Below, piece by piece: positions 2,668 through 45,991 of a stretch of DNA of 64,000 nucleotides. Under the pieces are notes generated by a model. It did not search any database. It saw only the letters and a list, made by a program, of their open reading frames with translations, and was not told the DNA's origin. Source of the DNA: Candidatus Eremiobacteraceae bacterium (GTDB lineage: Bacteria > Vulcanimicrobiota > Vulcanimicrobiia > Eremiobacterales > Eremiobacteraceae); the NCBI GenBank assembly GCA_035710745.1, contig DASTCX010000039.1, positions 1-64,000 of the forward strand. The letters run 5' to 3'. Numbering within the stretch: the stretch's first letter is position 1; each line of letters begins with the position of its first letter. The position numbers were made by a program, and so were the translations under genes.

Positions 2668-2690
2668 CGGTCGACCGTAAAGGTCGACCG
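2668..2690 (-). repeat. Interspersed palindrome, type B, reverse orientation, solo
   Basis: Inverted repeat with arms CGGTCGACC and GGTCGACCG around GTAAA. Read on the minus strand it is the type B unit with centre TTTAC, preceded by GGAA and followed by CCGCC. It lies between rplA and the L10 leader. Confidence 0.85.
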
Positions 2691-2697
2691 TTCCAAC

Positions 2698-2800
2698 CGG
2701 ACGTCCGATGACAGCAGGCCGCGCTCGCGCGCGTTAATCCCCGAAAGGGGACCTGCCGAGGAAGTGAACGGGTTTGACGGAGCCTCTCGCTCCGGACGGC
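2698..2800 (+). promoter_or_regulatory. Ribosomal protein L10 leader
   Basis: The 200 nt upstream of rplJ contain the two hallmarks of the bacterial L10 leader: GACAGCAGG on one side and the complementary CCTGCCGAGG on the other, separated by hairpins (for example CCCCGAAAGGGG). Known L10 leaders bind the L10(L12)4 complex and repress rplJL. The boundaries are approximate, set from the paired blocks and the downstream hairpins; a covariance-model search was not possible here. Confidence 0.75.
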
Positions 2801-2870
2801 ACGGGCGCTTTCTCGAGGACTCTCGAGAGGGCGTTCGTCACGTTCAGAGCGAGGAGGTGAATACACGACC

Positions 2871-3404
2871 ATGCCTACCGAGAAAAAGAACGAAGCGATC
2901 GAGGAGCTCAAGCAAAGGCTTGCGGCGCATCCGAACGTCTTCTTCACCGACTTCCGCGGACTGACGGTCACCGAGCTGCGCACGTTGCGAAACGCGCTCC
3001 GCAAGGAATCCGTCTCGTACGAAGTCGTGAAGAACACGCTCTTCGGCATCGCGATCGGCGGCGAGAAGCGGACGGAGCTCAAGTCCGTGCTCGAAGGACC
3101 GACCGGGATCGCCTTCGTCGGACCGGACCCGGTCGGTGCCGCAAAAGCGCTGACGCAGTTCGCGAACGACTCGAAGAAGCTGCAGATCAAGGCCGCGATC
3201 GTCGACGGACGCGTCATCGATCGCGCGCAGATCGAGGCGCTGTCGAAGGTGCCGCCGCGCGGCGAGCTCCTGTCGCGACTCGTCGGCAGCCTGCGCTCTC
3301 CGATCTACCGACTGCACGGAGCGATGCAAGGCCACCACCGTCGTCTGGTCTACGTGCTCAGCGCGATCCACGAGAAGCGCGCGCAAGCCGAACCAGCCGC
3401 TTAA
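2871..3404 (+). CDS. rplJ: 50S ribosomal protein L10
   Basis: A 177-residue L10 starting MPTEKKNEAIEELKQRL after a strong GAGGAGGTG. The N-terminal rRNA-binding domain contains FFTDFRGLTVTELRTLRNAL and VKNTLFGIA. The C-terminal helix that anchors L7/L12 dimers follows (YRLHGAMQGHHRRLVYVL). It is the base of the ribosomal stalk, probably autoregulated through the leader just upstream, and is followed by rplL. Confidence 0.96.
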   Translation: MPTEKKNEAIEELKQRLAAHPNVFFTDFRGLTVTELRTLRNALRKESVSYEVVKNTLFGIAIGGEKRTELKSVLEGPTGIAFVGPDPVGAAKALTQFANDSKKLQIKAAIVDGRVIDRAQIEALSKVPPRGELLSRLVGSLRSPIYRLHGAMQGHHRRLVYVLSAIHEKRAQAEPAA

Positions 3405-3420
3405 GCACTAAGAATTGTAG

Positions 3421-3459
3421 CGGTCGAGCTTTAGCTCGACCGGCCGAGCGCTGCTCGGC
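3421..3459 (+). repeat. Interspersed palindrome, type C, with second hairpin
   Basis: Arms CGGTCGAGCT and AGCTCGACCG surround TT (3421-3442). A second 17-nt hairpin follows at once (3443-3459), with stem GCCGAGC/GCTCGGC. The copy at 32636 has the same composite layout and the same TTGTAG prefix. It lies between rplJ and rplL. Confidence 0.88.
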
Positions 3460-3483
3460 ATGAGAAAGGAAATCAGGACAATC

Positions 3484-3861
3484 ATGGCTATCAGCGAATT
3501 GCTCGATCAGATCGACAAGCTCACGGTCGTCGAGCTCCACGAGTTCGTCAAAGCGCTCGAGGAGAAGTACGGCGTTACGGCGGCGGCACCGGTCGCGGTC
3601 GCGGCTGCGGGCGGCGGTGGCGCAGCAGCGCCTGCCGCGGAAGCGAAGACCGAATTCGACGTCATCCTCACGGCGGCCGGCGAGAAGAAGATCAACGTCA
3701 TCAAGGTCGTGCGCGAAGTCGTGCCCGGCCTCGGCCTCAAGGAAGCTAAGGACCTCGTCGAGGGTGCTCCCAAGGCCGTCAAGACCGGCGTCACAAAGGA
3801 AGAAGCCGACGCGGTCAAGGCCAAGCTCGAAAGCGAAGGCGCGAAGGTCGAGATTAAGTAG
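3484..3861 (+). CDS. rplL: 50S ribosomal protein L7/L12
   Basis: A 125-residue L7/L12. The N-terminal dimerisation domain ([20 protein letters not shown]) is followed by an alanine/glycine-rich hinge (residues about 35-55) and the C-terminal factor-binding domain ([35 protein letters not shown]). The start at 3484 is preferred because GAAAGGAAATCAGGA acts as ribosome binding site; an upstream in-frame ATG at 3460 would add an unusual leader. An intrinsic terminator follows. Confidence 0.96.
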
Positions 3862-3888
3862 TACGATCCGCAGGTCAACGAAACGGAT

Positions 3889-3919
3889 GCGCCGAGGGTC
3901 GCCCTCGGCGCTCTTTTTC
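3889..3919 (+). terminator. Rho-independent terminator after rplL
   Basis: A perfect GC-rich stem GCGCCGAGGG/CCCTCGGCGC with a very short loop is followed by TCTTTTTCT. It ends the ribosomal protein transcript. Confidence 0.9.
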
Positions 3920-3927
3920 TAAGCGGG

Positions 3928-3956
3928 TTCACAGACGTAAGCCCAGCTGTTAGGAT
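3928..3956 (+). promoter_or_regulatory. Probable housekeeping promoter for the DHA2 transporter
   Basis: TTCACA (3928-3933) and TAGGAT (3951-3956) are separated by 17 bp, close to the sigma-70 -35/-10 consensus. The GTG start at 3968 is only 11 nt past the -10 box, so the mRNA would be nearly leaderless. No Shine-Dalgarno is seen, which agrees with that. Confidence 0.5.
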
Positions 3957-3967
3957 ACTATAGAAGC

Positions 3968-5575
3968 GTGAGCAGCGCGACCATAGCACGCACGAGCGGC
4001 GTGCGCCAAGAGATCAACCCAGCCGAGCCTGGCCAGCGGCGCTTGGCTCTGATCAGCCTTGCCGTCATGCTCGGCATGATCATGGCGATCATCGACACGA
4101 CGATCGTCAATGTCGCGCTCAACCAGATCGGCGGCAATCTCGGCGCGTCGCTCGACGAGGTCGGTTGGGTCGCCACCGGATATCTGCTCTCGGCGGTCAT
4201 CATCATGCCGCTCAACGGGTGGTTGACCGCGAGGTTCGGACGCAAGAACTACTACGCGGTTTCGGTCGCGATCTTCACGATCGCGTCGGCGCTATGCGGT
4301 ACGGCGACGAACATCTGGCAGCTCGTCGCCTATCGCGTCATCCAAGGCATCGGCGGCGGTGCGCTCCAGCCGACCGCGCAAGCCATCCTCTTCGAGTCGT
4401 TCCCACCCGAGAAGCGTTCGCAGAGCATGGCGCTTTTCGGCCTCGGAGCGATGGTCGGGCCGGCGGTCGGGCCGCTTCTCGGCGGTTACCTCGTGTCGAA
4501 TTACAATTGGCCGCTGATCTTCTATATCAACCTGCCGATCGGCATCGTCGCATTCTTCATGGCGCTCGCCTTCATTGACGACCCGCACTACATCGAGAAG
4601 CACGAGCAGCCGCTCGACGTGCTTGCGCTCGGCTTGCTCACTATCGGCCTCGCGTCGCTCCAGTACGTCCTCGAGCGCGGACAACATGACGATTGGTTCA
4701 ACTCCCCGCTCATCATCGTGCTGACCGTGAGCTCGATCATCTGCCTCGTCGCGTTCGTTTGGCGTGAGCTGCGGGTGGAGAACCCGCTCGTCGACCTGCG
4801 CGTCTTCGCGAACCGGACGTTCACCGCCGGCAACATCGTCGGCATCGTCACCGGTTTCGGCTTGTTCGGACTGAGCCTCATCTTGCCGCTGTTCATGCAG
4901 GCGCTGCTCGGATGGGATGCGTGGCAGACCGGCGTCGCGTTGTTGCCCGGCGCGCTCGCGACGGCGCTGAGCATGCTCGTCATCGGGCGGCTGTCGAATC
5001 GCATCGATGCCCGCCTCATCATGGCCGCCGGGCTGGCGATGTTCGCGTTCTCGACCTGGGCGATGAGCCACCTGACGCAGCAATCCGGCTTCTGGGATAT
5101 CTTCTGGCCGCGGGCGTGGCAAGGTTTCGCGCTTGGCTTCATCTTCGTGCCGCTTTCGGTCGTCACGATCTCCGCGCTGCGCCGGGATCAGATCGCTAAC
5201 GCGACGGGCATCGGCACGTTGCTTCGGCAGATCGGCGGCAGTCTCGGCATCGCGTTTCTGACGACCTATCTTCAGGGCGACATCCAGCGCGTCTACGCCT
5301 CGCTTGCGTCGCAGATCAACGACGGCCGGTCGATCGTCCAACAGGCGATCGCGGCGGCAGCCGCCAGGATCATGGCGACCGGCGCGACTGCGACGGAGGC
5401 GCACCAGACGGCGCTCATGCAGATCGCTGGGCAGCTCCAGCTCAATGCGACGGCGATCGCGTACGAGGATCTCTTCCGGATCTCGGCGCTGCTCTTCTTC
5501 GTGACGCTGCCCGCGGTGCTGCTGCTCCAGAAGAGCAAGCGCGTCCCCGGCCCGGCCCCGCTGCACGCCGAGTAG
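3968..5575 (+). CDS. MFS drug efflux transporter, DHA2 (EmrB/QacA) family
   Basis: A 535-residue hydrophobic protein with about 14 predicted membrane helices. The first helix carries the DHA2 signature IIDTTIVNVALNQIGG. Motif A lies in NGWLTARFGRKN and motif C-like glycines in GLGAMVGPAVGPLLGGYLV. Such proteins are proton-driven exporters of drugs or other amphiphiles, usually pairing with an EmrA adaptor in diderms; none is adjacent. The GTG start gives an unstructured N-terminus of about 30 residues. The substrate cannot be predicted. Three palindromes follow the stop. Confidence 0.9.
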   Translation: MSSATIARTSGVRQEINPAEPGQRRLALISLAVMLGMIMAIIDTTIVNVALNQIGGNLGASLDEVGWVATGYLLSAVIIMPLNGWLTARFGRKNYYAVSVAIFTIASALCGTATNIWQLVAYRVIQGIGGGALQPTAQAILFESFPPEKRSQSMALFGLGAMVGPAVGPLLGGYLVSNYNWPLIFYINLPIGIVAFFMALAFIDDPHYIEKHEQPLDVLALGLLTIGLASLQYVLERGQHDDWFNSPLIIVLTVSSIICLVAFVWRELRVENPLVDLRVFANRTFTAGNIVGIVTGFGLFGLSLILPLFMQALLGWDAWQTGVALLPGALATALSMLVIGRLSNRIDARLIMAAGLAMFAFSTWAMSHLTQQSGFWDIFWPRAWQGFALGFIFVPLSVVTISALRRDQIANATGIGTLLRQIGGSLGIAFLTTYLQGDIQRVYASLASQINDGRSIVQQAIAAAAARIMATGATATEAHQTALMQIAGQLQLNATAIAYEDLFRISALLFFVTLPAVLLLQKSKRVPGPAPLHAE

Positions 5576-5592
5576 GCACCAACGCAAGGGAG

Positions 5593-5614
5593 CGGTCGAG
5601 ATTTATCTCGACCG
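5593..5614 (+). repeat. Interspersed palindrome, type A (array 1, unit 1)
   Basis: Arms CGGTCGAGAT and ATCTCGACCG surround TT; flanks are GGGAG before and CCGTGGCC after. First unit of a three-hairpin array between the convergent MFS and M48 genes. Confidence 0.88.
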
Positions 5615-5644
5615 CCGTGGCCATACCACTCAGATAGATTGAAG

Positions 5645-5667
5645 CGGTCGACCTTTACGGTCGACCG
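5645..5667 (+). repeat. Interspersed palindrome, type B (array 1, unit 2)
   Basis: Arms CGGTCGACC and GGTCGACCG surround TTTAC; followed by CCGCGGTC. It starts 52 nt after the first unit. Confidence 0.88.
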
Positions 5668-5696
5668 CCGCGGTCTTATCAAATGAGAGAATGTAG

Positions 5697-5718
5697 CGGT
5701 CGAGCTTTAGCTCGATTG
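5697..5718 (+). repeat. Interspersed palindrome, type C (array 1, unit 3)
   Basis: Arms CGGTCGAGCT and AGCTCGATTG surround TT, with the outer right arm mutated (CGATTG instead of CGACCG). It starts 52 nt after unit 2 and ends 12 nt before the stop of the M48 gene. Confidence 0.82.
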
Positions 5719-5730
5719 CCGGTGCCTCTG

Positions 5731-6585
5731 CTACGAGGGCTTGTAGATAAGGCTCGTGTCGGTTGTCGACTTCGTAAGACCGCTCGTGACCGTTAGTCTA
5801 CTCGAATACTTGCCGAACTGCTTCGGGTCGCTCTTAAAAAACTGCTCGATGCGCGAGATGCGATCGCTCGTCGCCGGGTGGTCTTGCACATACTGCTCGA
5901 AGCCGGCGTTGCCGTAAAGTTTTTCGAGTTTCTGGAAGAACCAGACCATGCCCCAGGGGTTGTAGCCTGCCTGGCCGGCGAGGATGACGCCCTCGTGATC
6001 CGCCTGGTATTCCTGTGCGCGGCTGAAGTTCAAAAACGCGTAGCTGCCGAGGTAATTGACGAGGTCGAACGTCATCTGATTGTGGATGAAGATGCTCAGC
6101 ACGCTGCCGATGATCTGGGCGGTCTGCGCTTTGTGGATCCGGTCCATGACGTGGCCGAGCACGAGGTGTCCGGTTTCGTGGCCGAGGACGCTGGCGAGCT
6201 CGTCCTCGTTCTCGGCCTGCGCCATGAGCGCATCGTTCACGTAGACGCTGCCGCCGGGCACCGAAAACGCGTTGACATCCTTACCCTTGACGAGGATCCA
6301 GTTCTGGTTGTACCATCGCGGCTGATTCGCGGCGGCGATCTTATCGCCCACCGCACGGAGCGCGGGATACCAGGGGGACGTGTCCTCGATCTGGTTCTGG
6401 CTGCGAAGCTGCTGGTAGACTTGGTTGCCTATCTGGCGTTCCTGATCGTGCGCGTCGGCCAAGGCTTCGCTCGGCAGCGCTGCTGCGGCGACTGCCGCGA
6501 TAGCAGCGGCGCCGGCACCCTTCAAAAGGTCGGATCGCTTGAGCAACGCGGGGTTGCAATGGAGGCAGTATTCGGCGGGTTTCAT
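5731..6585 (-). CDS. M48 family metalloprotease, exported
   Basis: A 284-residue zinc peptidase. The N-terminus has a basic patch (LLKRSD) and a long alanine-rich hydrophobic stretch (residues 22-44), resembling a signal peptide or membrane anchor. The zinc motif HETGH is at residues 136-140, with a third ligand candidate Glu192 in QEYQADHEG, the M48B pattern. The C-terminal DHPATSDRISRIEQFF is typical of BepA/YfgC/LoiP-like periplasmic M48 proteins involved in envelope quality control. No TPR domain follows. It lies downstream of the TonB-C gene on the same strand. Confidence 0.88.
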   Translation of the reverse strand: MKPAEYCLHCNPALLKRSDLLKGAGAAAIAAVAAAALPSEALADAHDQERQIGNQVYQQLRSQNQIEDTSPWYPALRAVGDKIAAANQPRWYNQNWILVKGKDVNAFSVPGGSVYVNDALMAQAENEDELASVLGHETGHLVLGHVMDRIHKAQTAQIIGSVLSIFIHNQMTFDLVNYLGSYAFLNFSRAQEYQADHEGVILAGQAGYNPWGMVWFFQKLEKLYGNAGFEQYVQDHPATSDRISRIEQFFKSDPKQFGKYSSRLTVTSGLTKSTTDTSLIYKPS

Positions 6586-6648
6586 CGCTCTGATAACGTC
6601 TCTTGTGTCAGGTTTGTCGCGAATACCGGCCGGAGGCTCACCAAATTC

Positions 6649-8166: not shown

Positions 8167-8222
8167 GCGGTGCCTCCCCTTATGGGGTGCTGCCGTCGTC
8201 CTTCGCTCAAGCGCGGCCGCGG

Positions 8223-8244
8223 CGGTCGAGATAAATCTCGACCG
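8223..8244 (-). repeat. Interspersed palindrome, type A, reverse orientation, solo
   Basis: Arms CGGTCGAGAT and ATCTCGACCG surround AA. On the minus strand it reads as type A with the usual GGGAG prefix and CCGCGGCC suffix. It lies between hppA and the TonB-C gene. Confidence 0.87.
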
Positions 8245-8261
8245 CTCCCATCAACCGATAC

Positions 8262-10361
<2,100 letters not shown>

Positions 10362-11686: not shown

Positions 11687-11712
11687 AGTACGGGTTATGG
11701 GGGAACAGGCAT

Positions 11713-13617: not shown

Positions 13618-13637
13618 CGCGGCCCCATTTGTTGTAG

Positions 13638-13659
13638 CGGTCGAGCTAAAGCTCGATCG
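13638..13659 (-). repeat. Interspersed palindrome, type C (array 2, inverted)
   Basis: Arms CGGTCGAGCT and AGCTCGATCG surround AA. On the minus strand it is the third unit (type C) of an inverted A-B-C array between the sigma gene and ftsY. Confidence 0.85.
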
Positions 13660-13684
13660 CTACAGACGCTCGACAAGGTCGTGG

Positions 13685-13707
13685 CGGTCGACCGTAAAGG
13701 TCGACCG
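13685..13707 (-). repeat. Interspersed palindrome, type B (array 2, inverted)
   Basis: Arms CGGTCGACC and GGTCGACCG surround GTAAA, which is type B read on the minus strand, with an ATGGAG prefix and a CCGCCACG suffix there. Confidence 0.88.
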
Positions 13708-13736
13708 CTCCATCTTTTTCTATGGCGCGATCGCGG

Positions 13737-13758
13737 CGGTCGAGCTATAGCTCGACCG
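13737..13758 (-). repeat. Interspersed palindrome, type A position (array 2, inverted)
   Basis: A fully symmetrical palindrome, arms CGGTCGAGCT and AGCTCGACCG around AT. It occupies the type A position of the inverted array and is followed on the minus strand by CCGCGATC. Confidence 0.85.
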
Positions 13759-13814
13759 TTCTATGGCGAGGCCTACCAAGGTCGAGTCGCGGCATCGTCC
13801 GAAACACCACGCAC

Positions 13815-19001: not shown

Positions 19002-19016
19002 CGACGTCTTTGGGAG

Positions 19017-19038
19017 CGGTCGAGATTCATCTCGACCG
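19017..19038 (+). repeat. Interspersed palindrome, type A, solo
   Basis: Arms CGGTCGAGAT and ATCTCGACCG surround TC, with TGGGAG before and CCACGGTCTT after. It lies between the kinase and GH125 genes. Confidence 0.87.
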
Positions 19039-19111
19039 CCACGGTCTTGCGGGTTCCTGTGCGCGCCGTAACGCAGGAGCGAACAAACGTTTGCGGTAGT
19101 TTCGCAGCGAC

Positions 19112-21841: not shown

Positions 21842-22203
21842 AACCGTCGCGGGCGCTGGCGACCTTTGCGACGCTCGAACGGCGGCCTGCCGCTGCGGTC
21901 TTCGCATCGAACGCCGAGCGGCGCCGAAGCGAGGCTGCGGCAGCGCGCGAGCACCAGTGTAACGTCGCGACTCGCACTTTCCTGGCCGCGCAGCCGCTTT
22001 GGACGTCCGAGCTCTGCTCGATCATAGAGCGGCGATTTGATCGAAGCTACGTCACGCTGCGAGACCTTGCGCGGTGTAGAGCGGCGGCGGAACGCCGCGG
22101 CGAGACCCACGAAGCACAGCGCCGCCGATGGGCGCGCATGGTTCGCGGGCTCGAGCGCCGGATCGCCCGCGCGGCGGAGCAGGAGCCGATTTGGCCAGAC
22201 TGA
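21838..22203 (+). CDS. FliJ-like coiled-coil protein
   Basis: 121 residues from a GTG overlapping purA. It is rich in Arg, Ala and Glu, with long helical stretches (EAAAAREHQCN, DLARCRAAAERRGETHEAQR). Small size, basic/acidic coiled coil and position just before a FliM-like gene fit FliJ, the export chaperone escort. No FliJ motif is strong enough for a firm call. It overlaps the next gene by 13 nt. Confidence 0.5.
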   Translation: MKPSRALATFATLERRPAAAVFASNAERRRSEAAAAREHQCNVATRTFLAAQPLWTSELCSIIERRFDRSYVTLRDLARCRAAAERRGETHEAQRRRWARMVRGLERRIARAAEQEPIWPD

Positions 22204-23378
22204 CCGAAGGCCAAGCGGAATCGCTCATATCGGCTCTGACGCGAGACACGGGCGTTTACGCGGCCACGAGCAGCGCGCCGAGCGATCCGTCGGCGTGGCA
22301 TCCGGCCGAAGGCGTCGAATCGCCGCCGACCGCGACGGAGACCGACACCGACGCTCGGCGGCTACGCGCGTTCGCCCGCGATGCCGCGAAGACCGATGAG
22401 GTCGGGCGCACGCTCACGCTCGATTTGGCTTCGTATTTGCGCCGTCCGGTGCGCTGCTCGCTGAACCGCGCGGCTCCGGCGATCGCATCATCGTGGCGCT
22501 TCGGTGCGAAGATCGACGGCGGAATGGCGTGGATTGACATCGACACCGGCCTGGCGTCGGCATTCGCGGACGCCATGATCGGCGGCGATGGCACGGCGCA
22601 GATCGGGCGCGGCCGCAAGGTGCGAGGGCTTGCATCGATCGTCGCTAAGCGCATGCTCGACGCGATCGCGGCAGCCGCGGCGGTCGGACTTCGAGGCCCG
22701 GTGGAAGCCACCGCACAAGCGGACGAACACGGTCCGGCGATCGCCGGCGGTTTTTGTGCTGTTGCGATCGATCAATTCCCCTGGGCGATCGGCGTCGCCG
22801 CGTCCGTGCCCTTGGCCGCGCAGGCGAGACCGTCTCCGGTCGACGATAAACGTCGACCGCTCCATACCACCGACCCAGAGGAGGCGTTGCGGAACGCGAT
22901 CGACGCCCTCGACACGCGGTTATCCGAGCTGACCCTCAACCGCGTGATCGCGCGGCAGGCGAAGATCGAGCGAATCGACGGGGCGGAAGTCGCCGGCCCT
23001 CCTGGTGTCATCCTCGGACTCGCTTTGACGGCCGGCGGCAACGGCGTCGTCGTCGCGTTCGCGGACGCTGCAGCCGTGTCGGGTATCGCCGGCGCGGCAG
23101 CGGGCGGCGCGGCCGCATCTGCGACCGGCGTTCCAGGCGAGATCGCGCTTGCGGCAGCCGAGGCGGTGGTCCGAGATGCCCTCGAGCGCGCGGTCGTAAA
23201 TCTGCCCGCCCTTGGCGACGAGGGCCACAGAATCGTCCGTCTCTCGGACGATCCGCTCACCGCCCGGACGCCGCATCACGCGGTCGACGTCGAGGTGTCG
23301 AGCGAGGGCAAAAAGGGAACGCTCAGGGTGCTCGTGCCGTCGTGGATGCTCGTCCATCGGGAGAAGAAGGGCCGTTGA
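22191..23378 (+). CDS. FliM/CheC-like protein with two tandem middle domains
   Basis: 395 residues from TTG. The N-terminus MARLTEGQAESLISALTRDT resembles the CheY-binding peptide of FliM. Residues about 60-210 look like a FliM middle domain (LASYLRRPVRCSL, AFADAMIGGDGTA, ASIVAKRMLDAIAAA). Residues 225-390 look like a second copy (VVAFADAAAVSGIAGAAAGG, AAAEAVVRDALERA, KGTLRVLVPSWMLV). I see no SpoA/FliN domain at the C-terminus. A type B palindrome lies in frame at the domain junction. If flagellar, it would be a switch component; only FliJ- and FliO-like genes accompany it. Confidence 0.55.
   Translation: MARLTEGQAESLISALTRDTGVYAATSSAPSDPSAWHPAEGVESPPTATETDTDARRLRAFARDAAKTDEVGRTLTLDLASYLRRPVRCSLNRAAPAIASSWRFGAKIDGGMAWIDIDTGLASAFADAMIGGDGTAQIGRGRKVRGLASIVAKRMLDAIAAAAAVGLRGPVEATAQADEHGPAIAGGFCAVAIDQFPWAIGVAASVPLAAQARPSPVDDKRRPLHTTDPEEALRNAIDALDTRLSELTLNRVIARQAKIERIDGAEVAGPPGVILGLALTAGGNGVVVAFADAAAVSGIAGAAAGGAAASATGVPGEIALAAAEAVVRDALERAVVNLPALGDEGHRIVRLSDDPLTARTPHHAVDVEVSSEGKKGTLRVLVPSWMLVHREKKGR
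22837..22859 (-). repeat. Interspersed palindrome, type B-like, inside the FliM-like gene
   Basis: Arms CGGTCGACG and CGTCGACCG surround ATAAA, followed by CTCCAT as in the other reverse copies. It is translated in frame as PVDDKRRP at about residue 218 and does not break the gene. Confidence 0.85.
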
Positions 23379-28399: not shown

Positions 28400-30849
28400 A
28401 CGGTCCGGGCGAGCGCTTCGGCGAAGCGACGCTCGCCACGCTCGAGTTCCCGCAAGTCATCGAGCAGATCGCGGCGTACGCGACGTGCGACCCGGGCGGT
28501 GGATCGGTGCGAGCGTTGCGGCCATATCCGGACCGCGCGCAGGCCGAAGAAGATCTCCGGCTCGTCGACGACGGCGTTTCCATGTTCCAAGCCGGAACCG
28601 AGTTCGCATTCGGTGGAGCAGTCGATGTCGCCGACGCGCTCGACCGCGCTGAGGTCGGTGGTGTCCTGGGAGGCGTCGAGCTGCGCGATATCGCGCGTTC
28701 TGAACGCGCCCTCGCGACCGCGACCACAAAGATCAAGAAGTATTCCGACGGGCGACCGAAAGACGCCGACCCACGCTCGACCTCGCAAAGAGAAAAGGGA
28801 GCGGTCGAGATTCATCTCGACCGTCGCGGCCTTGCAGTTTTGGCTGATCAACGCGCGGATACCGCAGCTTTAATCCGTCGCCTCGAAACCGCCGTCGACG
28901 GCGACGGCGCACTGACCGACGCCGCATCGTCCGAACTCGCGCGTCTGCGCCGCCAACAGCGCTCCCTCTCGGACGACATCCGAAAACGCGTCGACTCGAT
29001 CGTCCGCGATGCCTCGACCGCCAAACTGCTGACCGAGGCGATCGTGACGACGCGGGGCGGGCGATACGTCGTGCCGGTTCGGGCCGACGCCGCCGGGCAG
29101 TTCTCGGGCGTCGTCCACGGACAGTCCGCATCGGGAGCGACCGTTTACGTCGAGCCGATGGCGTGCGTCGAGGCGAACAATCGCCTGCGAGGGCTCGAGG
29201 CAGAGGAAGAGCGCGAGACGCAGCGCGTGCTCGCTGAGTTGTCCGCGCTCGTCAGCGGACACGTCGAGGCGCTCCGCTCGAATGGCGCACTCGTCGCGCG
29301 GCTCGACTCGATCGGCTCGCGAGCGCGCTGGGCGGTCGCGACGCGCGCGATCGCACCCCGGCTTATCGAGGCGAGGAGCGTCCGCATCGCGCATGGTCGC
29401 CATCCGCTGCTGCGTCGCGCGGCCGTACCGCTCGACGTCGAGGTAGGACGCGATGCCGACGCCGTCGTCATCTCCGGGCCGAACATGGGCGGCAAGACCG
29501 TCGTGCTCAAGACGATCGGTCTGTTCTGCGTTCTCGCGCACTCCGGCATCCCGCTGCCGGCGAGCGCCGGCACCGAGATCGGCGAATTCGATCACATCGC
29601 GTGCATCATCGGCGACGAGCAATCGATCGCGAACAACCTGTCGTCGTTCGCCGCGCACCTGCGAGCCTTGCGTGCGGCCATCGAGCGCGCCGGCCCGCGG
29701 TCCCTCGTCCTCGTCGACGAGATCGGCAGCGGCACCGAGCCCGGCGCGGGTGCTGCGCTCGCGCAAGCGTGCGTCGAGGCGCTCCTAGCGGCCGGCGCAC
29801 GGGTCGTCGTGACGACACACTACGCGCAGCTCAAGGTGTTCGCGGCTTCGCGCGATCGCGTCGCGAACGCGTCGATGCTCTTCGACGCGGCTACACACGA
29901 ACCGACGTACTTGCTCGCGATGGGCGTTCCGGGCCAAAGCCTCGCGTTCGCGCTTGCGGACTCGATCGGTATGGACGCGACGATCGTCCGGCGAGCCGAG
30001 ACGCTCCAAGGCGAAGATGCGCAACGACTCGAGCGTGCTTTCGCAAATCTCGCCGAGGAGCGCGAACGCCTGCACGAGCAGTCGGCGGCGGCGGAGCGCG
30101 AACTCGACCGGCTCCGCGGCGTCGAAACGGAGCTCCGCGAACGCGTCGCGGCCGCCGAGAAGGAGCGCCAGTCGTTCGAACGCCGCGCATCCGAAGCGCT
30201 CGATCGCGCCGCTCAAACCGTCCGCGACGAGCTCATCGCGAGGGCCGAGCGCAGCGAGAGCGATGCGCGCCGCCAGCGTACGGGAACGAACGTCGATGCG
30301 ACGGACGCGATACGCCGCACGATGGCCGACATCCGGCGTAGTCTCGGTCTCGACCAGAGCGCGCCGGCGAGCGCCGCGCCGAACGCGTACAGCGTCGGCG
30401 ATCGCGTCTACGTGAGGACGTTCGGCCAGACGGGCATCGTCAGCGAAGTCTTCGAGCGCGACGTGCTTGTGACGATGGGTTCGGTGAAGGCGGTGGTCTC
30501 GCGGGCGGATCTGACGCGCGATCCGGCGGTGACGACGAAGCAAGGCGCAAGCGGGACTCGTGCGACGTCGCTGCAGCATGCGGAGTCGCGCGTGGCGTCG
30601 CTCGACGCGTCGACCTCGATCGATGTCCGCGGCATGCGGGTCGACGAGGCGATGCCGATCGTCGACAAGGCACTCGATGACGCGAGCCTCGCGGGTCTTA
30701 CGACTTTGCGCGTCATCCATGGCAAGGGAACGGGGCAGCTCGGCCGCGGCATCCGCGATTTCCTCAAAGGTCACGCGCAGGTACAGGCTGCCGCGTTCGC
30801 GCCCGACAACGAGGGCGGCACCGGCGTCACCGTCATCACGCTCCGCTAG
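28396..30849 (+). CDS. mutS2: Endonuclease MutS2
   Basis: 817 residues from a GTG overlapping gatB. The core and clamp regions are followed by a MutS ATPase domain with Walker A GPNMGGKTVVLKTIG and DEIGSGTEPGAGAALAQA, then a long coiled coil (residues about 535-640), KOW-like segment and C-terminal Smr nuclease domain (SIDVRGMRVDEAMP, VIHGKGTGQLGRGIRDFLKG). MutS2 acts in ribosome rescue or recombination control. A type A palindrome is translated in frame near residue 136 (GAVEIHLDRR), between the N-terminal helices. Confidence 0.94.
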   Translation: MNGPGERFGEATLATLEFPQVIEQIAAYATCDPGGGSVRALRPYPDRAQAEEDLRLVDDGVSMFQAGTEFAFGGAVDVADALDRAEVGGVLGGVELRDIARSERALATATTKIKKYSDGRPKDADPRSTSQREKGAVEIHLDRRGLAVLADQRADTAALIRRLETAVDGDGALTDAASSELARLRRQQRSLSDDIRKRVDSIVRDASTAKLLTEAIVTTRGGRYVVPVRADAAGQFSGVVHGQSASGATVYVEPMACVEANNRLRGLEAEEERETQRVLAELSALVSGHVEALRSNGALVARLDSIGSRARWAVATRAIAPRLIEARSVRIAHGRHPLLRRAAVPLDVEVGRDADAVVISGPNMGGKTVVLKTIGLFCVLAHSGIPLPASAGTEIGEFDHIACIIGDEQSIANNLSSFAAHLRALRAAIERAGPRSLVLVDEIGSGTEPGAGAALAQACVEALLAAGARVVVTTHYAQLKVFAASRDRVANASMLFDAATHEPTYLLAMGVPGQSLAFALADSIGMDATIVRRAETLQGEDAQRLERAFANLAEERERLHEQSAAAERELDRLRGVETELRERVAAAEKERQSFERRASEALDRAAQTVRDELIARAERSESDARRQRTGTNVDATDAIRRTMADIRRSLGLDQSAPASAAPNAYSVGDRVYVRTFGQTGIVSEVFERDVLVTMGSVKAVVSRADLTRDPAVTTKQGASGTRATSLQHAESRVASLDASTSIDVRGMRVDEAMPIVDKALDDASLAGLTTLRVIHGKGTGQLGRGIRDFLKGHAQVQAAAFAPDNEGGTGVTVITLR
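28802..28823 (+). repeat. Interspersed palindrome, type A, inside mutS2
   Basis: Arms CGGTCGAGAT and ATCTCGACCG surround TC, with GGGAG before and TCGCGGCCTTG after, the same flanks as the solo intergenic copy at 19017. The mutS2 frame stays open across it. Confidence 0.88.
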
Positions 30850-32608: not shown

Positions 32609-32635
32609 AACTAACCAACGCAATTGATCTTGTAG

Positions 32636-32674
32636 CGGTCGAGCTTTAGCTCGACCGGCCGAGCGAAGCTCGGC
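32636..32674 (+). repeat. Interspersed palindrome, type C, with second hairpin
   Basis: Arms CGGTCGAGCT and AGCTCGACCG surround TT (32636-32657), then a second 17-nt hairpin (32658-32674), stem GCCGAGC/GCTCGGC around GAA. Same composite layout as the 3421 copy. It lies between convergent genes and ends 2 nt before the hslO stop codon. Confidence 0.88.
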
Positions 32675-34444: not shown

Positions 34445-34456
34445 AATGCCTGGGAG

Positions 34457-34478
34457 CGGTCGAGATTTATCTCGACCG
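34457..34478 (+). repeat. Interspersed palindrome, type A (array 3, unit 1)
   Basis: Arms CGGTCGAGAT and ATCTCGACCG surround TT, with TGGGAG before and CCGCGGTCTTTC after. First unit of an array between the convergent HU and GH92 genes. Confidence 0.9.
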
Positions 34479-34509
34479 CCGCGGTCTTTCGATGGCGCAG
34501 AAAATGGAG

Positions 34510-34532
34510 CGGTCGACCTTTACGGTCGACCG
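34510..34532 (+). repeat. Interspersed palindrome, type B (array 3, unit 2)
   Basis: Arms CGGTCGACC and GGTCGACCG surround TTTAC, with ATGGAG before and CCGCGGCCTTTC after. It starts 53 nt after unit 1. Confidence 0.9.
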
Positions 34533-34562
34533 CCGCGGCCTTTCGAAGCGACAGGTCGGCTC

Positions 34563-34584
34563 CGGTCGAGCTAAAGCTCGACCG
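34563..34584 (+). repeat. Interspersed palindrome, type C (array 3, unit 3)
   Basis: Arms CGGTCGAGCT and AGCTCGACCG surround AA, followed by CTACAA. It starts 53 nt after unit 2. Confidence 0.9.
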
Positions 34585-34599
34585 CTACAAACAATTTTG

Positions 34600-38862: not shown

Positions 38863-38865
38863 AAC

Positions 38866-38890: not shown

Positions 38891-38921
38891 GCTTGTCGCT
38901 GTACAGATCGTAGGCGAGGTC

Positions 38922-39464: not shown

Positions 39465-39673
39465 GCGTTTGTCTCCGATCTTTCAGATTTGCCCGTCGTA
39501 CATTGTTCCCGGCATGTGACAAACGGTAACGCAGCATATGCGCGTCCCGTACGCGTGAGCGGTACGGGACGAAACGTGAAGTCGCTCGAAGTCGGGTGTC
39601 CGGAAGTGGGCGCGTCAAACGTCGTAAGGTCGGAGAACAACTCCACCTATAAAATCACAAAGGAGCACGAGCC

Positions 39674-41271: not shown

Positions 41272-41789
41272 AGGCCAAGCCCGTCGTCGACCGCGGCGAG
41301 CGTACCCGCAAGAACCATCCGCGCATCGCTAAGCCCACGCTCTCAGATCACCTCGCGGTCATGACGCGTGCGATTTTCCAGGCCGGCCTCAGCTGGGCTC
41401 AGATCGACGCGCAATGGGAGCGTCTTGTCGAGGCCTTCGAAGGCTTCGATCCGGTTAGGATCTCTCGCTACGATCACGACGACGTGCGCCGGATCCTGGC
41501 CACGCCGGGGATATTGCACAGCGAACGCAAGATCCGCGCGGCGATCGACAACGCGAAGGAGATGCTCGAGCTCGATCGGGAGCACAAAGCGTTTCGGGCT
41601 TATCTGCGCTCGCATGATACGTATGCCGATTTGACGGCCGACCTGCGGCGCAAATTCAAATACGTCGGCGACGTGAGCGCGTACTACTATCTCTTCAGGG
41701 TCGGCGAGAAGGTGCCGCCATTCGGGCGCTGGATAAAAACTGTCGAAGGCGACCATCCACGAATCCGCGAGATGGTCAAACAAAAATAG
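41268..41789 (+). CDS. DNA-3-methyladenine glycosylase-like protein
   Basis: 173 residues from a GTG overlapping the sigma gene by 4 nt. LAVMTRAIFQAGLSWAQIDA, EGFDPVRISRYDHDDVRRIL and IRAAIDNAKEMLEL match the Tag/HhH-GPD-like fold in which helices surround the DNA lesion. The zinc-binding Cys/His set of classical Tag is not evident, so this is a divergent family member. Base-excision activity is inferred. It is probably co-transcribed with the ECF42-like sigma. Confidence 0.7.
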   Translation: MKAKPVVDRGERTRKNHPRIAKPTLSDHLAVMTRAIFQAGLSWAQIDAQWERLVEAFEGFDPVRISRYDHDDVRRILATPGILHSERKIRAAIDNAKEMLELDREHKAFRAYLRSHDTYADLTADLRRKFKYVGDVSAYYYLFRVGEKVPPFGRWIKTVEGDHPRIREMVKQK

Positions 41790-41799
41790 AGATGGGGAG

Positions 41800-41821
41800 C
41801 GGTCGAGATTCATCTCGACCG
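41800..41821 (+). repeat. Interspersed palindrome, type A (array 4, unit 1)
   Basis: Arms CGGTCGAGAT and ATCTCGACCG surround TC, with GGGGAG before and CCGCGGTTAG after. First unit of an array between the convergent glycosylase-like and DUF72 genes. Confidence 0.9.
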
Positions 41822-41853
41822 CCGCGGTTAGACCCAATGAAGTGTGGATGGAG

Positions 41854-41876
41854 CGGTCGCCCTTCACGGGCGACCG
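41854..41876 (+). repeat. Interspersed palindrome, type B variant (array 4, unit 2)
   Basis: Arms CGGTCGCCC and GGGCGACCG surround TTCAC. The inner arm differs from type B at two paired positions (ACC to CCC on one side, GGT to GGG on the other), a compensated change. ATGGAG before, CCGCGGTCTG after. Confidence 0.88.
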
Positions 41877-41920
41877 CCGCGGTCTGACCTGTGCGCGATA
41901 TCGAGCTGGAGGCCCGTCTC

Positions 41921-41942
41921 CGGTCGAGCTAAAGCTCGACCG
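41921..41942 (+). repeat. Interspersed palindrome, type C (array 4, unit 3)
   Basis: Arms CGGTCGAGCT and AGCTCGACCG surround AA, with GTCTC before and CTACAG after. It starts 67 nt after unit 2, wider than in the other arrays. Confidence 0.88.
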
Positions 41943-41951
41943 CTACAGGTC

Positions 41952-42734
41952 TCAGGAGAGCGCCTCGATGCGGGCGACCAAGTCTTCGCACGTCGTCGGC
42001 GAGTGCCCGGCATAGTCGTCGCTGACGTAGACGAAGAGATCGTCGACGTTTTTGCGTGCCTTCGCGAGCAGCCGCGCCCAGGCGTCGAGCGACTCGCTTC
42101 GGTCGACCTGAACCCGATCGTAGTGCTCGAACGCGGTCAGACCCATGAGCCGTGCATAGGCGAACCCGAGTTCACTGCCTTGCTCTTCGAGCACTCGCTG
42201 TGCGAGCTCGAGGGTCGAATGCGGGCCTTCGGTCGCGGCGAGAGCGAAGCGCTGGCTGCGTGCGGCCTCGAACAGCGCGTCATCGAACCAGTCGCGGTGA
42301 CGAAGCTCGAGGACCGTGTTGACGTCGGGCGGCAGATGCTCGTCGAGGAACGTGTAAAGGCGCGTTTTGTTCGCGGGCGTCGGGCGAAAATCGCCGCCGC
42401 ATTGGAGCAGGAGCGCTCCGAGTCGCGGGCCGAGGAGCCGCGCGCGGTCGACGAACCACGTGAAGCTCTGGCCGGCATCTTCGAAATGTTTTTTATGCGT
42501 CACTTCGCGCGACACTTTGAGCGCGAACGTGAACTCTTCGGGTGCGGCGTCGCGCCATGCGACGACCGTCGACTCGCGCGGCCGCCCGTAGAACGTCGAG
42601 TCGACCTCGACCGACGAAAAAAGGCGTGCGTAGAGCGCGAGCATGTCGGGCGGTTTTGTCTCGGCGGGATAGACGGAACCGATCCAGTCCTTCTCTTGCC
42701 ACCCCATGCAGCCGATGTGAAGGCGACCCGACAT
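41952..42734 (-). CDS. DUF72 (YecE-like) family protein
   Basis: 260 residues. The family pattern is clear: IGCMGWQEKDWIGSVYP, YARLFSSVEVDSTFYGRP, FTFALKVSREVTHKKHF, GALLLQCGGDFRP, LELRHRDWF and VYVSDDYAGHSPTT. DUF72 proteins adopt a TIM-barrel-like fold; the molecular role is not established. It follows the SDR gene by 2 nt on the same strand, suggesting one transcript. Confidence 0.9.
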   Translation of the reverse strand: MSGRLHIGCMGWQEKDWIGSVYPAETKPPDMLALYARLFSSVEVDSTFYGRPRESTVVAWRDAAPEEFTFALKVSREVTHKKHFEDAGQSFTWFVDRARLLGPRLGALLLQCGGDFRPTPANKTRLYTFLDEHLPPDVNTVLELRHRDWFDDALFEAARSQRFALAATEGPHSTLELAQRVLEEQGSELGFAYARLMGLTAFEHYDRVQVDRSESLDAWARLLAKARKNVDDLFVYVSDDYAGHSPTTCEDLVARIEALS

Positions 42735-42736
42735 TG

Positions 42737-43471
42737 CTAGTGGCTGTTCATCTGCTCGAACAGCACCCCGCGCTCTTCGGCAGACGCGTTCATCGACTGG
42801 ACCGAGAATCCGTACGTCACCTCACGTTTGCCCTCGCGAAGCTGCTCGAAGGCCGAGTCGACAAAATCCTCGAGCGGCACACCAAATGTGTGGAGGCCAA
42901 CGCCGCCGAGGTCCGTATCGACCGCGGGAGGGATGATCTCGATGACCTCGACCGAGGTGTCCGCGAGCTGATGTCGCAACGACAGCGTGAACGACCGCAT
43001 GGCCGCCTTCGTGGCGCAATAGACGGGCACGGCCGTGCGGGGCACGAATGCGAGTCCGGACGTCACGTTGAGGATCGCGGCGTTCGGTCGTTTGGCGAGC
43101 CGCGGCGCGAACAGAGTCGACAGATGGATGGGCGCCTCGAGATTCGTCGCGATCTCTTTATGCATCGCCGGCCAACCCGGATTCTCAGCCAGCTGCAGCC
43201 GGTTCTGTATGCCCGCGTTGTTGATGAGGACGTCGAGTTCGGGGAACTCGCTGAAAACCCATTCGGTCAGTTCGACGCGGTGTTCCGCATCGGCCACGTC
43301 GCAGACGTGCGTCCGTAGCGCGCGATGTTTCCCGTGTGCTTCCTCGAGCTTGTCGGCTCGGCGCCCGCAGAGGATGACCGTATTGCCGGCCCCGAGAAAC
43401 CGCTCCGCGAGCGCGAAACCGATGCCGCTTGCGCCGCCGGTGACGAGTATGGTGTGTCCGCTGATATCCAT
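42737..43471 (-). CDS. Short-chain dehydrogenase/reductase
   Basis: 244 residues from MDISGHTILVTGGASGIGFA, the glycine-rich NAD(P)-binding motif TGGASGIG. The NNAG motif is INNAGIQN, and the catalytic Ser-Tyr-Lys set is LNVTSGLAF and VPVYCATKAAMRSF. C-terminal FEQLREGKREVTYGF resembles the DltE/YdfG-type SDRs. Substrate unknown. An upstream in-frame start at 43504 would add 11 residues without family match. Confidence 0.9.
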   Translation of the reverse strand: MDISGHTILVTGGASGIGFALAERFLGAGNTVILCGRRADKLEEAHGKHRALRTHVCDVADAEHRVELTEWVFSEFPELDVLINNAGIQNRLQLAENPGWPAMHKEIATNLEAPIHLSTLFAPRLAKRPNAAILNVTSGLAFVPRTAVPVYCATKAAMRSFTLSLRHQLADTSVEVIEIIPPAVDTDLGGVGLHTFGVPLEDFVDSAFEQLREGKREVTYGFSVQSMNASAEERGVLFEQMNSH

Positions 43472-43686
43472 TCCGCTGGATACACCTTCGCGTCGCCGCC
43501 CCACCTTCAGAATCGGTAGACCTGTCCCGGCGACTTCGAAGAACGGAAGCGCGGGCGCGTGCGAGAAAACGGTGGCGCGTTAGCTCGGCAAACAGCGGGT
43601 TGAGCCTCGCATTCCGAAGCCACGCTCGAACTTGACATGTCCGCGGCATTGAAACGCTACCATGCCGTCTGATAAACTATAGCCTC

Positions 43687-44283
43687 ATGAGCCGACTCGA
43701 GTTCTGGTTCGACTTCGCGAGCACGTACTCGTATGTCGCCGCGATGCGCATCGACGATCTGTGCCGAGACGCGGGCGTCGCGCTCGAATGGGTGCCGTTT
43801 CTTCTCGGCCCGATCTTCCAGCTTCAAGGGTGGAACGACTCGCCGTTCAATCTCAACGAGCGGCGCGGCGCCTACATGTGGCGTGACCTCGAACGCTTGA
43901 CGGCGAAATTCGGCCTGCGTTGGAAACGCCCGACGATATTTCCGCGTGCGTCGACGCTTGCCGCACGCGTCGCATCTTCGGTCACCGACGAGGTGTGGTG
44001 CGGCGACTTCGTCCGCGCTGTCTACGTGGCGAATTTCGGCGACGACCTCGATATCAGCGACGAGCGGGTCATCGTCGGAGTGCTCGACGGGCTTGGGCGC
44101 GACGGCAGCTCGATCGTCAAACGAGCGCTCGAGCCCGAGCGGCGCGGCCTGCTCCGCGTGAACACAGAGCGCGCGATCGAACTCGGTATCTTCGGCGCGC
44201 CGAACTGCATCGTCGGCCGCGAACTGTTCTGGGGAGAAGAAGCGCTCGACGACGCGATCGCGTGGTCGCAAAAGGAGAGTTGA
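43687..44283 (+). CDS. DsbA-family thioredoxin-like protein (HCCA isomerase type)
   Basis: 198 residues. LEFWFDFASTYSYVAAMRID replaces the CxxC of DsbA with a serine-rich ST-Y pattern, as in 2-hydroxychromene-2-carboxylate isomerases and related kappa-class GSTs. PIFQLQGWNDSPFNLNERR, FGAPNCIVGRELFWGEEALD are typical. These are glutathione-dependent isomerases in aromatic degradation, but many relatives are uncharacterised. Three nt upstream of the PQQ-propeller gene. Confidence 0.85.
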   Translation: MSRLEFWFDFASTYSYVAAMRIDDLCRDAGVALEWVPFLLGPIFQLQGWNDSPFNLNERRGAYMWRDLERLTAKFGLRWKRPTIFPRASTLAARVASSVTDEVWCGDFVRAVYVANFGDDLDISDERVIVGVLDGLGRDGSSIVKRALEPERRGLLRVNTERAIELGIFGAPNCIVGRELFWGEEALDDAIAWSQKES

Positions 44284-44285
44284 TA

Positions 44286-45614
44286 GTGCGTCATGGCGTG
44301 CTAGCGGCGTCGCTCTTGTTCTTGACCGCATGCGGTCCGGCATACGCCGGCGACGCGACGACGTTTCGCGGCGATTCCGCGCATTCAGGCGTCTACCAGG
44401 GCACCGGAGTCACCAAGCTCGCCGGCGTCAAGTGGACGTTCCACACGCACGGCTACGTCAACTCGAGCCCCGCCGTGTCGAACGGCGTCGTTTACGTCGG
44501 AAGCACGGACGGGAATGTCTATGCCGTCAGCGCCGATACGGGCACGTTGCGCTGGAAGTTCGCGACGGGCAGCCGCGTCGTCTCATCACCGGCGGTGACG
44601 AACGATGGCGTCTACCTGCTGAGCTATGACGGCTTTTTCTACGCGCTCGACAATGCGAACGGCAAGGTGCGGTGGAAGTTCAAGACGGGCGGCGAGCACC
44701 GCTTCGAAGCGCCGCATCTCCACGGCACGCTGCCCGTGAACGAGATCATGCCGGACCCGTTCGACATGTACCTATCGTCGCCGGTCGTCACCGACGGCCT
44801 CGTCTACTTCGGAAGCAGCGATGGGAACGTCTACGCGCTTGACGCGGCGAGCGGGGCGCTGAGCTGGAAGTTCAAGACCGGCGACGTCGTCCACGCCTCA
44901 CCGGCGATCGCGGGCGGCACGCTGTACGTCGGCAGCTGGGATAGCTATTTCTACGCGCTCGATGCGAAGAGCGGGAAGGTTCGTTGGCGTTTCAAGACCG
45001 GCGCGGACCCGGTCATCCACAACCAAGTGGGGATACAATCATCCGCGTCGGTCGGTCGAGGCATGGTCTACTTCGGCTGCCGCGATTCGCACCTGTATGC
45101 GCTCGACGCTGCGACCGGCGCTCTTCGCTGGTCGATCCCGACGCACGGGTCGTGGGTGATCTCGTCGCCGGCGATCGACGGCGCACACGTCTATTTCGCG
45201 ACGTCTGATAGCGGCCTGTTCTATTCAGTCGACGCGCGCACGGGCAAGGTCGGTTTCTCGCTCGACTTCAAGCAATGGCCGATGTTCTCGTCGCCGGCGA
45301 TCGCGGGCCATATGGCATATATCGGTTCGCACGACGGCAAGCTGATCGCGATCGACGTCGACCGCGGGGCAGTCGCCTGGACGTTCCGCACCGATGGGCA
45401 GAAGAAGAGCGGGGCGACGTATACGAACGCCGACGGCACGCCGAACTACGAGGCAGCGTATCCCGGTACTTTCTACGACGACCTCATCGTCGGATATTCG
45501 CGGCTCATGACCGTCGGCGCCATCATCTCATCGCCGGTCGTCGACGGCGATTCGCTCTATTTCGGGAGCACGGACGGGAATCTGTACGCGCTTCAGGTCC
45601 GACAGGACGGATAG
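44286..45614 (+). CDS. PQQ-like beta-propeller lipoprotein
   Basis: 442 residues from GTG. The N-terminus ends in LFLTACGPAYA, a lipobox with Cys near residue 17. At least seven repeats of the PQQ/BamB type follow, each with a core like GNVYAVSADTGTLRWKFATG or GNVYALDAASGALSWKFKTG. Such propellers act as enzyme scaffolds (quinoprotein dehydrogenases) or envelope assembly factors (BamB). No quinoprotein active-site features are obvious, so the role is open. Confidence 0.85.
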   Translation: MRHGVLAASLLFLTACGPAYAGDATTFRGDSAHSGVYQGTGVTKLAGVKWTFHTHGYVNSSPAVSNGVVYVGSTDGNVYAVSADTGTLRWKFATGSRVVSSPAVTNDGVYLLSYDGFFYALDNANGKVRWKFKTGGEHRFEAPHLHGTLPVNEIMPDPFDMYLSSPVVTDGLVYFGSSDGNVYALDAASGALSWKFKTGDVVHASPAIAGGTLYVGSWDSYFYALDAKSGKVRWRFKTGADPVIHNQVGIQSSASVGRGMVYFGCRDSHLYALDAATGALRWSIPTHGSWVISSPAIDGAHVYFATSDSGLFYSVDARTGKVGFSLDFKQWPMFSSPAIAGHMAYIGSHDGKLIAIDVDRGAVAWTFRTDGQKKSGATYTNADGTPNYEAAYPGTFYDDLIVGYSRLMTVGAIISSPVVDGDSLYFGSTDGNLYALQVRQDG

Positions 45615-45618
45615 AACG

Positions 45619-45897
45619 ATGCACGTCGTGATGAATATCCACAAGCCGCTTCCTGGTAAGGGCGAAGCTCTCAAGGCCTCGATGCGCCGGTACGGAGCCG
45701 CGGTGCGAACGCAGCCCGGCCTCATCGATGTCTACGCGATCGAAGCGACCGACGGAGCGCTTATCGGGCTAGCGATGTGGGAATCAAAAGAGGCGTGCGA
45801 TGCGGGTCGCCTGGCGGGCCGCGCCGCAGTCGAAGACGATCCTTTCGATGAGTGGGAATCGGAACCGGTCATCGGTTTCGAAGGTGAAGCGCGGTAA
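45619..45897 (+). CDS. Antibiotic biosynthesis monooxygenase (ABM) domain protein
   Basis: 92 residues: MHVVMNIHKPLPGKGEALKA, VRTQPGLIDVYAIEATDGA and LAMWESKEACDAG fit the small dimeric ferredoxin-like ABM fold. Members include heme-degrading or quinone-handling monooxygenases, but many have unknown roles. It lies 4 nt after the PQQ-propeller gene and shares its transcript. A terminator follows. Confidence 0.8.
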   Translation: MHVVMNIHKPLPGKGEALKASMRRYGAAVRTQPGLIDVYAIEATDGALIGLAMWESKEACDAGRLAGRAAVEDDPFDEWESEPVIGFEGEAR

Positions 45898-45918
45898 GCG
45901 CGCCGTCGATCAAGAAGA

Positions 45919-45952
45919 GAGAGGCGAATCGAATCGTTCGATCGCCTCTTTT
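45919..45952 (+). terminator. Intrinsic terminator after the ABM gene
   Basis: AGAGGCGA pairs with TCGCCTCT across an AT-rich loop containing ATCGTTCGAT, followed by TTTG. It ends the three-gene run from the DsbA-like gene. Confidence 0.7.
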
Positions 45953-45969
45953 GTACGTCTAGGCCGCGG

Positions 45970-45991
45970 CGGTCGAGCTAACGCTCGACCG
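45970..45991 (-). repeat. Interspersed palindrome, type C variant, solo
   Basis: Arms CGGTCGAGCT and CGCTCGACCG surround AA; the inner A-T pair is lost. Read on the minus strand it has TGTAG before and CCGCGGCCT after. It lies between the convergent ABM and S53 genes and is the last clear copy before a copy-free 18 kb. Confidence 0.82.

What the first reader, a model, noticed from the sequence alone, without database searches (positions are those of the whole stretch)
2668..45991. A 20-copy family of modular palindromes, apparently undescribed
Twenty sites share outer arms CGGTCG/CGACCG, with three inner-arm types: A (GAGAT/ATCTC), B (GACC/GGTC with TTTAC centre) and C (GAGCT/AGCTC). The inner pairs differ between types but keep complementarity (for example ACC/GGT versus CCC/GGG at 41854), which is covariation expected for a DNA cruciform or RNA hairpin. 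All starts are listed as features. Flanks are also shared (GGGAG or ATGGAG before; CCGCGGTC after types A and B; CTACAA after type C). I know of no named family with this pattern, but a named REP-like family cannot be excluded without a search.
Basis: partly seen in the sequence, partly recalled or inferred. Interest (0 to 1): 0.88.

Follow-up and report, generated by a model that had tools for sequence, protein, structure and literature searches.

The report
REP palindromes spread by RAYT transposases
The twenty palindromes are copies of a repeat present about 600 times in this uncultured Eremiobacterota genome, and they belong to the known REP class of tiny passenger elements moved by RAYT transposase genes, two of which the genome carries, each flanked by its own palindrome type.

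Summary
The window holds 20 copies of a hairpin with outer arms CGGTCG/CGACCG, in three inner types. The genome has about 600 copies, against 0-3 for a control pattern. A same-genus genome has 377. Most other relatives have background numbers.

The kind of element is known: repetitive extragenic palindromes (REPs) of the GTAG superfamily, mobilised by RAYT transposases. Evidence:
- Each hairpin has a 5' tetranucleotide head, GTAG (type C) or GGAG (types A and B), and a 3' tail CCGCGG.
- 101 of 103 sampled copies are extragenic, mostly between convergent genes, just past stop codons.
- The genome has exactly two RAYT genes, both above NCBIfam's REP_Tyr_transpos cut-off.
- One RAYT is flanked in inverted orientation by type A REPs only, the other by type C. 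The same pairing holds in the sister species.

So this is a new member of a known kind, in a phylum where the papers searched report none. Three features add interest. Two 61%-identical paralogous RAYTs pair with REPs that differ by one stem pair and one head base. Type B has no RAYT of its own. Head-to-tail arrays dominate, unlike in most described REP genomes. Mobilisation is inferred, not shown.

The parts
2662..2694 (-). REP type B (head GGAA, degenerate tail)
   Evidence: core
3417..3448 (+). REP type C (GTAG head), followed by hairpin GCCGAGCGCTGCTCGGC
5589..5620 (+). REP type A (GGAG head)
5641..5673 (+). REP type B (head GAAG)
5693..5724 (+). REP type C, 3' arm degenerate; closes an A+B+C+ head-to-tail cluster
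8217..8248 (-). REP type A, exact consensus
13632..13663 (-). REP type C, 5' arm degenerate (CGATCG)
13679..13711 (-). REP type B
13731..13762 (-). REP type C (degenerate head)
19013..19044 (+). REP type A
22831..22863 (-). type-B-like palindrome CGGTCGACGTTTATCGTCGACCG inside ORF 22191-23378; present at the same place in the sister species
28798..28829 (+). REP type A; aligned with a type B REP in the sister species, distal flanks dissimilar
32632..32663 (+). REP type C, followed by hairpin GCCGAGCGAAGCTCGGC
34453..34484 (+). REP type A, exact; first of an A+B+C- module
34506..34538 (+). REP type B, exact
34557..34588 (-). REP type C
41796..41827 (+). REP type A, exact; first of a second A+B+C- module
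41850..41882 (+). REP type B with compensated stem change (CCC/GGG)
41915..41946 (-). REP type C
45964..45995 (-). REP type C; aligned with a type B REP (CTCC head side) in the sister species

Best explanation
The palindromes are REP elements: non-autonomous passenger elements of a RAYT (TnpA_REP) system. Each unit is a GGAG or GTAG head, a 9-bp stem with a TTYA loop (TTTAC in type B), and a CCGCGG tail. When single-stranded, for example on the lagging-strand template, the head-bearing strand folds into a hairpin. A cognate RAYT, a one-tyrosine HUH nuclease, recognises the head, stem and loop, cleaves next to it and moves or copies the unit to new, mostly extragenic, sites. In this genus an ancestral RAYT/REP pair duplicated: RAYT-A works on type A (GGAG, loop closed by A-T) and RAYT-C on type C (GTAG, loop closed by C-G). 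Type B is either a variant served by RAYT-A, whose GGAG head it shares, or the remnant of a third, lost RAYT. Shown: anatomy, copy number, extragenic placement, presence of RAYTs, flanking association, conservation of the pairing, and copy and type differences between species. Inferred: recognition, cleavage and mobilisation.
For: Two Y1_Tnp genes in the genome. Both exceed NCBIfam NF047646 'REP-associated tyrosine transposase' (89 and 95 bits, cut-off 80), and RAYT-A matches PDB 4er8 TnpA_REP (E 8e-4). RAYT-A is flanked by 3+3 inverted type A REPs; RAYT-C by 2+2 inverted type C REPs, with a type A beyond. The sister species repeats this with 2+2 A and 2+4 C. Orthologous RAYTs are 82-85% identical and paralogues 61%. 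Head and inner stem co-segregate: A 60 GGAG to 1 GTAG, C 4 to 38, Fisher p about 2e-22. 101 of 103 sampled copies are extragenic (14% expected) and 65 of 97 lie in convergent gaps (23% expected). Orthologous loci of two species at 88-89% identity differ in REP number and type. Relatives carry RAYTs flanked by their own GTAG/GTGG hairpins with TTTA-type loops (G012, G002); about 300 near-exact copies in G012.
Against: No transposition was observed. Type B (97 strict copies, 51 of them exact) has no flanking RAYT in either genome. Genus g4 holds 159 related hairpins in G004 with no RAYT detected. RAYT-C has NPRRAN where the published RAYT motif NP(L/V)(R/K)xG expects G. Head-to-tail arrays dominate rather than inverted pairs.
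Confidence: 0.93

Rival explanations
1. The hairpins are host elements now kept mainly as transcription terminators or mRNA 3'-end stabilisers between convergent genes; the RAYT link is historical.
For: 65 of 97 copies lie in convergent gaps, many 8-30 bp past a stop codon; either strand can form the hairpin.
Against: Does not explain the strand-specific GGAG/GTAG head and its tie to the inner stem, the inverted flanking of RAYT genes, or copy and type differences between species. No conserved T-run follows the stem. Selection against insertion into genes and promoters explains the placement equally well. Co-option of some copies is compatible with the REP reading.
Confidence: 0.1
2. The palindromes are duplex binding sites of a chromosome-organising or regulatory protein, the types being affinity variants.
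For: Near-perfect palindromes, hundreds of copies, spread over the genome.
Against: The asymmetric head and tail, tandem arrays, type-specific association with RAYT genes and near absence from sister genera do not fit a conserved architectural site.
Confidence: 0.03
3. They are MITEs of a DDE-type insertion sequence.
For: Short, repeated, intergenic, palindromic.
Against: The unit is a single hairpin with a head, not a pair of terminal inverted repeats; the genes bounded by these palindromes are HUH/Y1 transposases. I did not search for DDE transposases.
Confidence: 0.01

Closest known systems
GTAG-superfamily REPs (24 families; Di Nocera et al. 2013, PMC3733652)
   Same: 20-40 bp hairpin, tetranucleotide head at one end, hundreds of copies, extragenic, mostly convergent or unidirectional gaps near 3' ends, several types in one genome, complementary stem variants, short loops.
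   Different: Stem sequence not found in the text of that paper (its figure is not held); two of three types have GGAG, not among the head variants the text lists (GYAG, GYRG, GTRG, GTMG, GTGG); [quoted passage not shown] Eremiobacterota not in its list of phyla.
Group 3 REPtrons (S. maltophilia Sm, Marinomonas Mb; Corneloup et al. 2021, PMC8266576)
   Same: Short, perfectly palindromic REPs directly after the tetranucleotide, important loop bases, cognate RAYT flanked by inverted REPs.
   Different: Different sequences and phylum; RAYT group not assigned here.
Stenotrophomonas and Pseudomonas RAYT/REP classes and 'orthoswitch' (Nunvar et al. 2010, 2013; PMC2817692, PMC3686654)
   Same: Several RAYTs per genome, each with its own REP class; REP classes without a resident RAYT occur and are explained by RAYT loss or by mutation of the RAYT-flanking REPs.
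   Different: Here two paralogues of 61% identity pair with REPs that differ by only one stem pair and one head base.
E. coli REP/BIME with TnpA_REP (group 2)
   Same: GTAG head, extragenic clusters, homologous transposase (4er8).
   Different: E. coli REPs are longer with a bulged stem; these have uninterrupted stems.

Membership tests
REP (GTAG superfamily) | 20-40 bp hairpin with a conserved unpaired tetranucleotide (GTAG or variant) at one end | tested here: met
   GTAG (type C), GGAG (types A, B) directly before the stem in nearly all copies. GGAG is a variant not in the published list read here.
REP (GTAG superfamily) | High copy number, tens to over a thousand per genome | tested here: met
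   about 600 in 2.97 Mb; 552 by strict type patterns
REP (GTAG superfamily) | Extragenic, mainly downstream of genes | tested here: met
   101/103 extragenic, 65/97 convergent, 5/97 divergent in a 364 kb sample with a home-made gene caller
REP (GTAG superfamily) | Clusters of regularly spaced units (BIME-like) | tested here: met
   spacing mostly 46-55 bp; clusters of 2-7; mostly head-to-tail, which is atypical
REP / RAYT system (REPtron) | RAYT gene flanked by its REPs in inverted orientation | tested here: met
   four REPtrons in two species
RAYT | IS200/IS605-like Y1 HUH domain with RAYT-type signature | tested here: met
   PF01797, NF047646 over cut-off, HIH/HVH motif and tyrosine before NP; NP(L/V)(R/K)xG only approximate (NPFRAG in A, NPRRAN in C)
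RAYT | Usually one copy per type, in a genomic position shared by relatives | tested here: inconclusive
   one copy of each type per genome; synteny of the RAYT loci not compared
REP / RAYT system (REPtron) | RAYT cleaves and joins the single-stranded cognate REP | not testable with these tools
   needs a biochemical assay
REP / RAYT system, type B | Cognate RAYT present | tested here: not met
   only two RAYTs in the genome, neither flanked by type B; the one inverted B pair with a suitable gap that was inspected holds no RAYT remnant
Rfam RNA families | Match to a curated family at gathering score | tested here: not met
   only two tRNAs in the window; weak sub-threshold chance matches at the RAYT loci

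The most novel reading that the evidence does not exclude
Two paralogous RAYTs in one lineage have split their substrates by a minimal change: one loop-closing base pair plus the second base of the head (GGAG or GTAG). A third type (B) persists as near-identical copies without its own transposase by parasitising RAYT-A. Unlike classical REPs, the elements spread as head-to-tail arrays by adding units at about 50-bp intervals next to existing ones.
Probability: 0.25. Interest if true: 0.55.

Novelty: new member of a known kind. Interest (0 to 1): 0.36.

Why it matters
It extends the REP/RAYT system to an uncultured phylum (Eremiobacterota/Vulcanimicrobiota) where the papers searched report none, and shows that several genera of one family each carry their own REP sequence next to their RAYT. 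The A and C pairs are a near-minimal natural experiment on how a single-strand transposase tells its REP from another: 26 fixed protein differences against three changed bases in the DNA. That makes REP recognition and the origin of new REP classes directly testable.

Tried and rejected
Rfam: no match at gathering score and only chance matches below it. Literature searches for the arm sequence, for REPs in Sphingomonas (an early wrong guess at the organism, made from GC content and gene content) and for palindromes or transposases in Eremiobacterota returned nothing on this element. A third RAYT for type B: not found with a protein search at E up to 1, and an inverted type B pair 347 bp apart on contig 26 holds no RAYT remnant. 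A RAYT in genus g4, which has related hairpins: none found. Decayed type B: rejected, since many B copies are exact in both species. Head-to-tail clusters as simple tandem duplication only: rejected as the sole cause, since 20 of 43 head-to-tail neighbours are of different types and their spacers differ.

Full report
Check of the observation. An exact search finds 18 with both outer arms intact; a mismatch-tolerant scan with oriented motifs finds 20 in the window, all between 2662 and 45995, with no hits for the reversed motifs. They are far above chance: 647 CGGTCGN8-12CGACCG in the 2.97 Mb genome against 3 for the backwards pattern. With the head included and at most one mismatch there are 259 type A, 196 type C and 97 type B, controls 0.

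Anatomy. Head and inner stem co-segregate: A has GGAG 60 times and GTAG once, C has GGAG 4 times and GTAG 38 times.

Host. A RAYT-A relative at 82% identity was found in 'Candidatus Eremiobacteria bacterium CRAIB_MAG119', contig JANWLL010000039.1 of 29,810 bases. The same-genus genome G001 has its RAYT-A on contig C39 of 29,810 bases, so G001 is probably that MAG, and the window comes from an uncultured member of the same genus in Eremiobacterota/Vulcanimicrobiota (lineage for the phylum).

Distribution. Of 100 relatives only G001 (377) and G004 (159) have the CGGTCGA...TCGACCG hairpins in number; G011 has 12 and the rest 0-6, i.e. background. G004's hairpins have a shorter stem (CGGTCGAA/TTYA/TTCGACCG), again mostly with GGAG or GTAG heads. 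Other genera have different hairpins beside their own RAYTs: GTAG-GGCGGACC/TTTAT/GGTCCGCC in G012 (about 300 near-exact copies genome-wide) and a GTGG-headed GGGTGGCAC/TTTTA/GTGCCACCC in G002.

The transposases. The genome has two Y1_Tnp genes and no third at E up to 1 with convincing similarity. Both pass NCBIfam's REP-associated tyrosine transposase cut-off; RAYT-A matches the solved E. coli TnpA_REP 4er8. RAYT-A lies between three type A REPs upstream and three downstream, in inverted orientation; RAYT-C lies between two and two type C REPs, with a type A copy further out. In G001 the RAYT-A orthologue has 2+2 type A and the RAYT-C orthologue 2+4 type C. A-A identity is 82%, C-C 85%, A-C 61%; the tree groups the four with good support, A with A and C with C, so the duplication predates the two species. 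There are 26 fixed differences between the paralogues, including P65F beside the HUH motif.

Placement and dynamics. In a 364 kb sample with a simple coding-potential gene caller (87.7% coding), 101 of 103 typed copies are extragenic where 14% of random positions are; 65 of 97 sit between convergent genes (23% of intergenic positions) and 5 between divergent ones; many start 8-30 bp past a stop codon (binomial tests). Two species at 88-89% identity show orthologous gaps with different numbers and types of REP: for example A-B-C against A-A at 5593, type A aligned with B at 28802 and C aligned with B at 45970. The distal flanks at 28802 are dissimilar, so independent insertion and conversion cannot be told apart. 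This fits gain, loss or replacement, but no clean single-unit insertion with an empty site was isolated.

Arrangement. Neighbours within 160 bp are head-to-tail in 43 of 57 cases, with heads outside in 13 and heads inside in 1, mostly 46-55 bp apart. Twenty of the 43 head-to-tail pairs join different types, and A+B+C- modules recur (two in the window). [quoted passage not shown] The sample was not drawn at random, but the window and several arbitrary stretches agree.

Type B. Neither genome has a RAYT flanked by type B, yet 51 of 97 strict copies in G000 are exact. One inverted B pair with a gene-sized gap was checked and holds no RAYT remnant. Published surveys explain such orphan classes by RAYT loss or by mutation of the RAYT-flanking REPs (PMC3686654); both remain open, as does use of B by RAYT-A, whose GGAG head B shares.

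Mechanism. By homology with TnpA_REP (PMC8266576), RAYTs recognise the head-bearing strand of the REP as single-stranded DNA and cleave at a dinucleotide beside it. Complementary changes in the stem are therefore expected from folding of single-stranded DNA and need not mean a structured RNA. This step is inferred from family knowledge; no assay was possible.

Verdict. A genuine, well-described pattern; the kind is known; the sequence family and host phylum appear new; the paired paralogues with minimally different substrates are the most useful part.

Noticed in passing
window 3443-3459, 32658-32674; L047, L052, L066: A second short hairpin, GCCGAGC-GAA-GCTCGGC, usually after TGTAGTAG, occurs 7-8 times with a GNAG head in 364 kb of the own genome and 5 times in 108-124 kb of the sister species, often near type C REPs; possibly a fourth REP type.
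   Followed up: partly
window 22837-22859: A type-B-like palindrome lies in frame inside ORF 22191-23378 (read as PVDDKRRPL) and is present at the same place in G001, like the REPs inside genes described in other bacteria.
   Followed up: partly
G004 (L059-L065): A related genus carries about 159 copies of a shorter hairpin CGGTCGAA-TTYA-TTCGACCG with GGAG/GTAG heads but no detectable RAYT: an apparently orphaned REP family.
   Followed up: partly
L034/L118 (G012:C59 about 95727-96164): RAYT of genus g3 preceded by eight tandem GTAG/GTGG-headed copies of GGCGGACCTTTATGGTCCGCC at about 34 bp spacing, each followed by a T-rich stretch, which might act as terminators.
   Followed up: no
window 53892-53912: Isolated hairpin CGGTCGGCGTTTTGCCGACCG with a GAAG head, about 26 bp after gene 53018-53866 and ahead of the tRNA at 53994; either a terminator or a far-diverged REP.
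   Followed up: no
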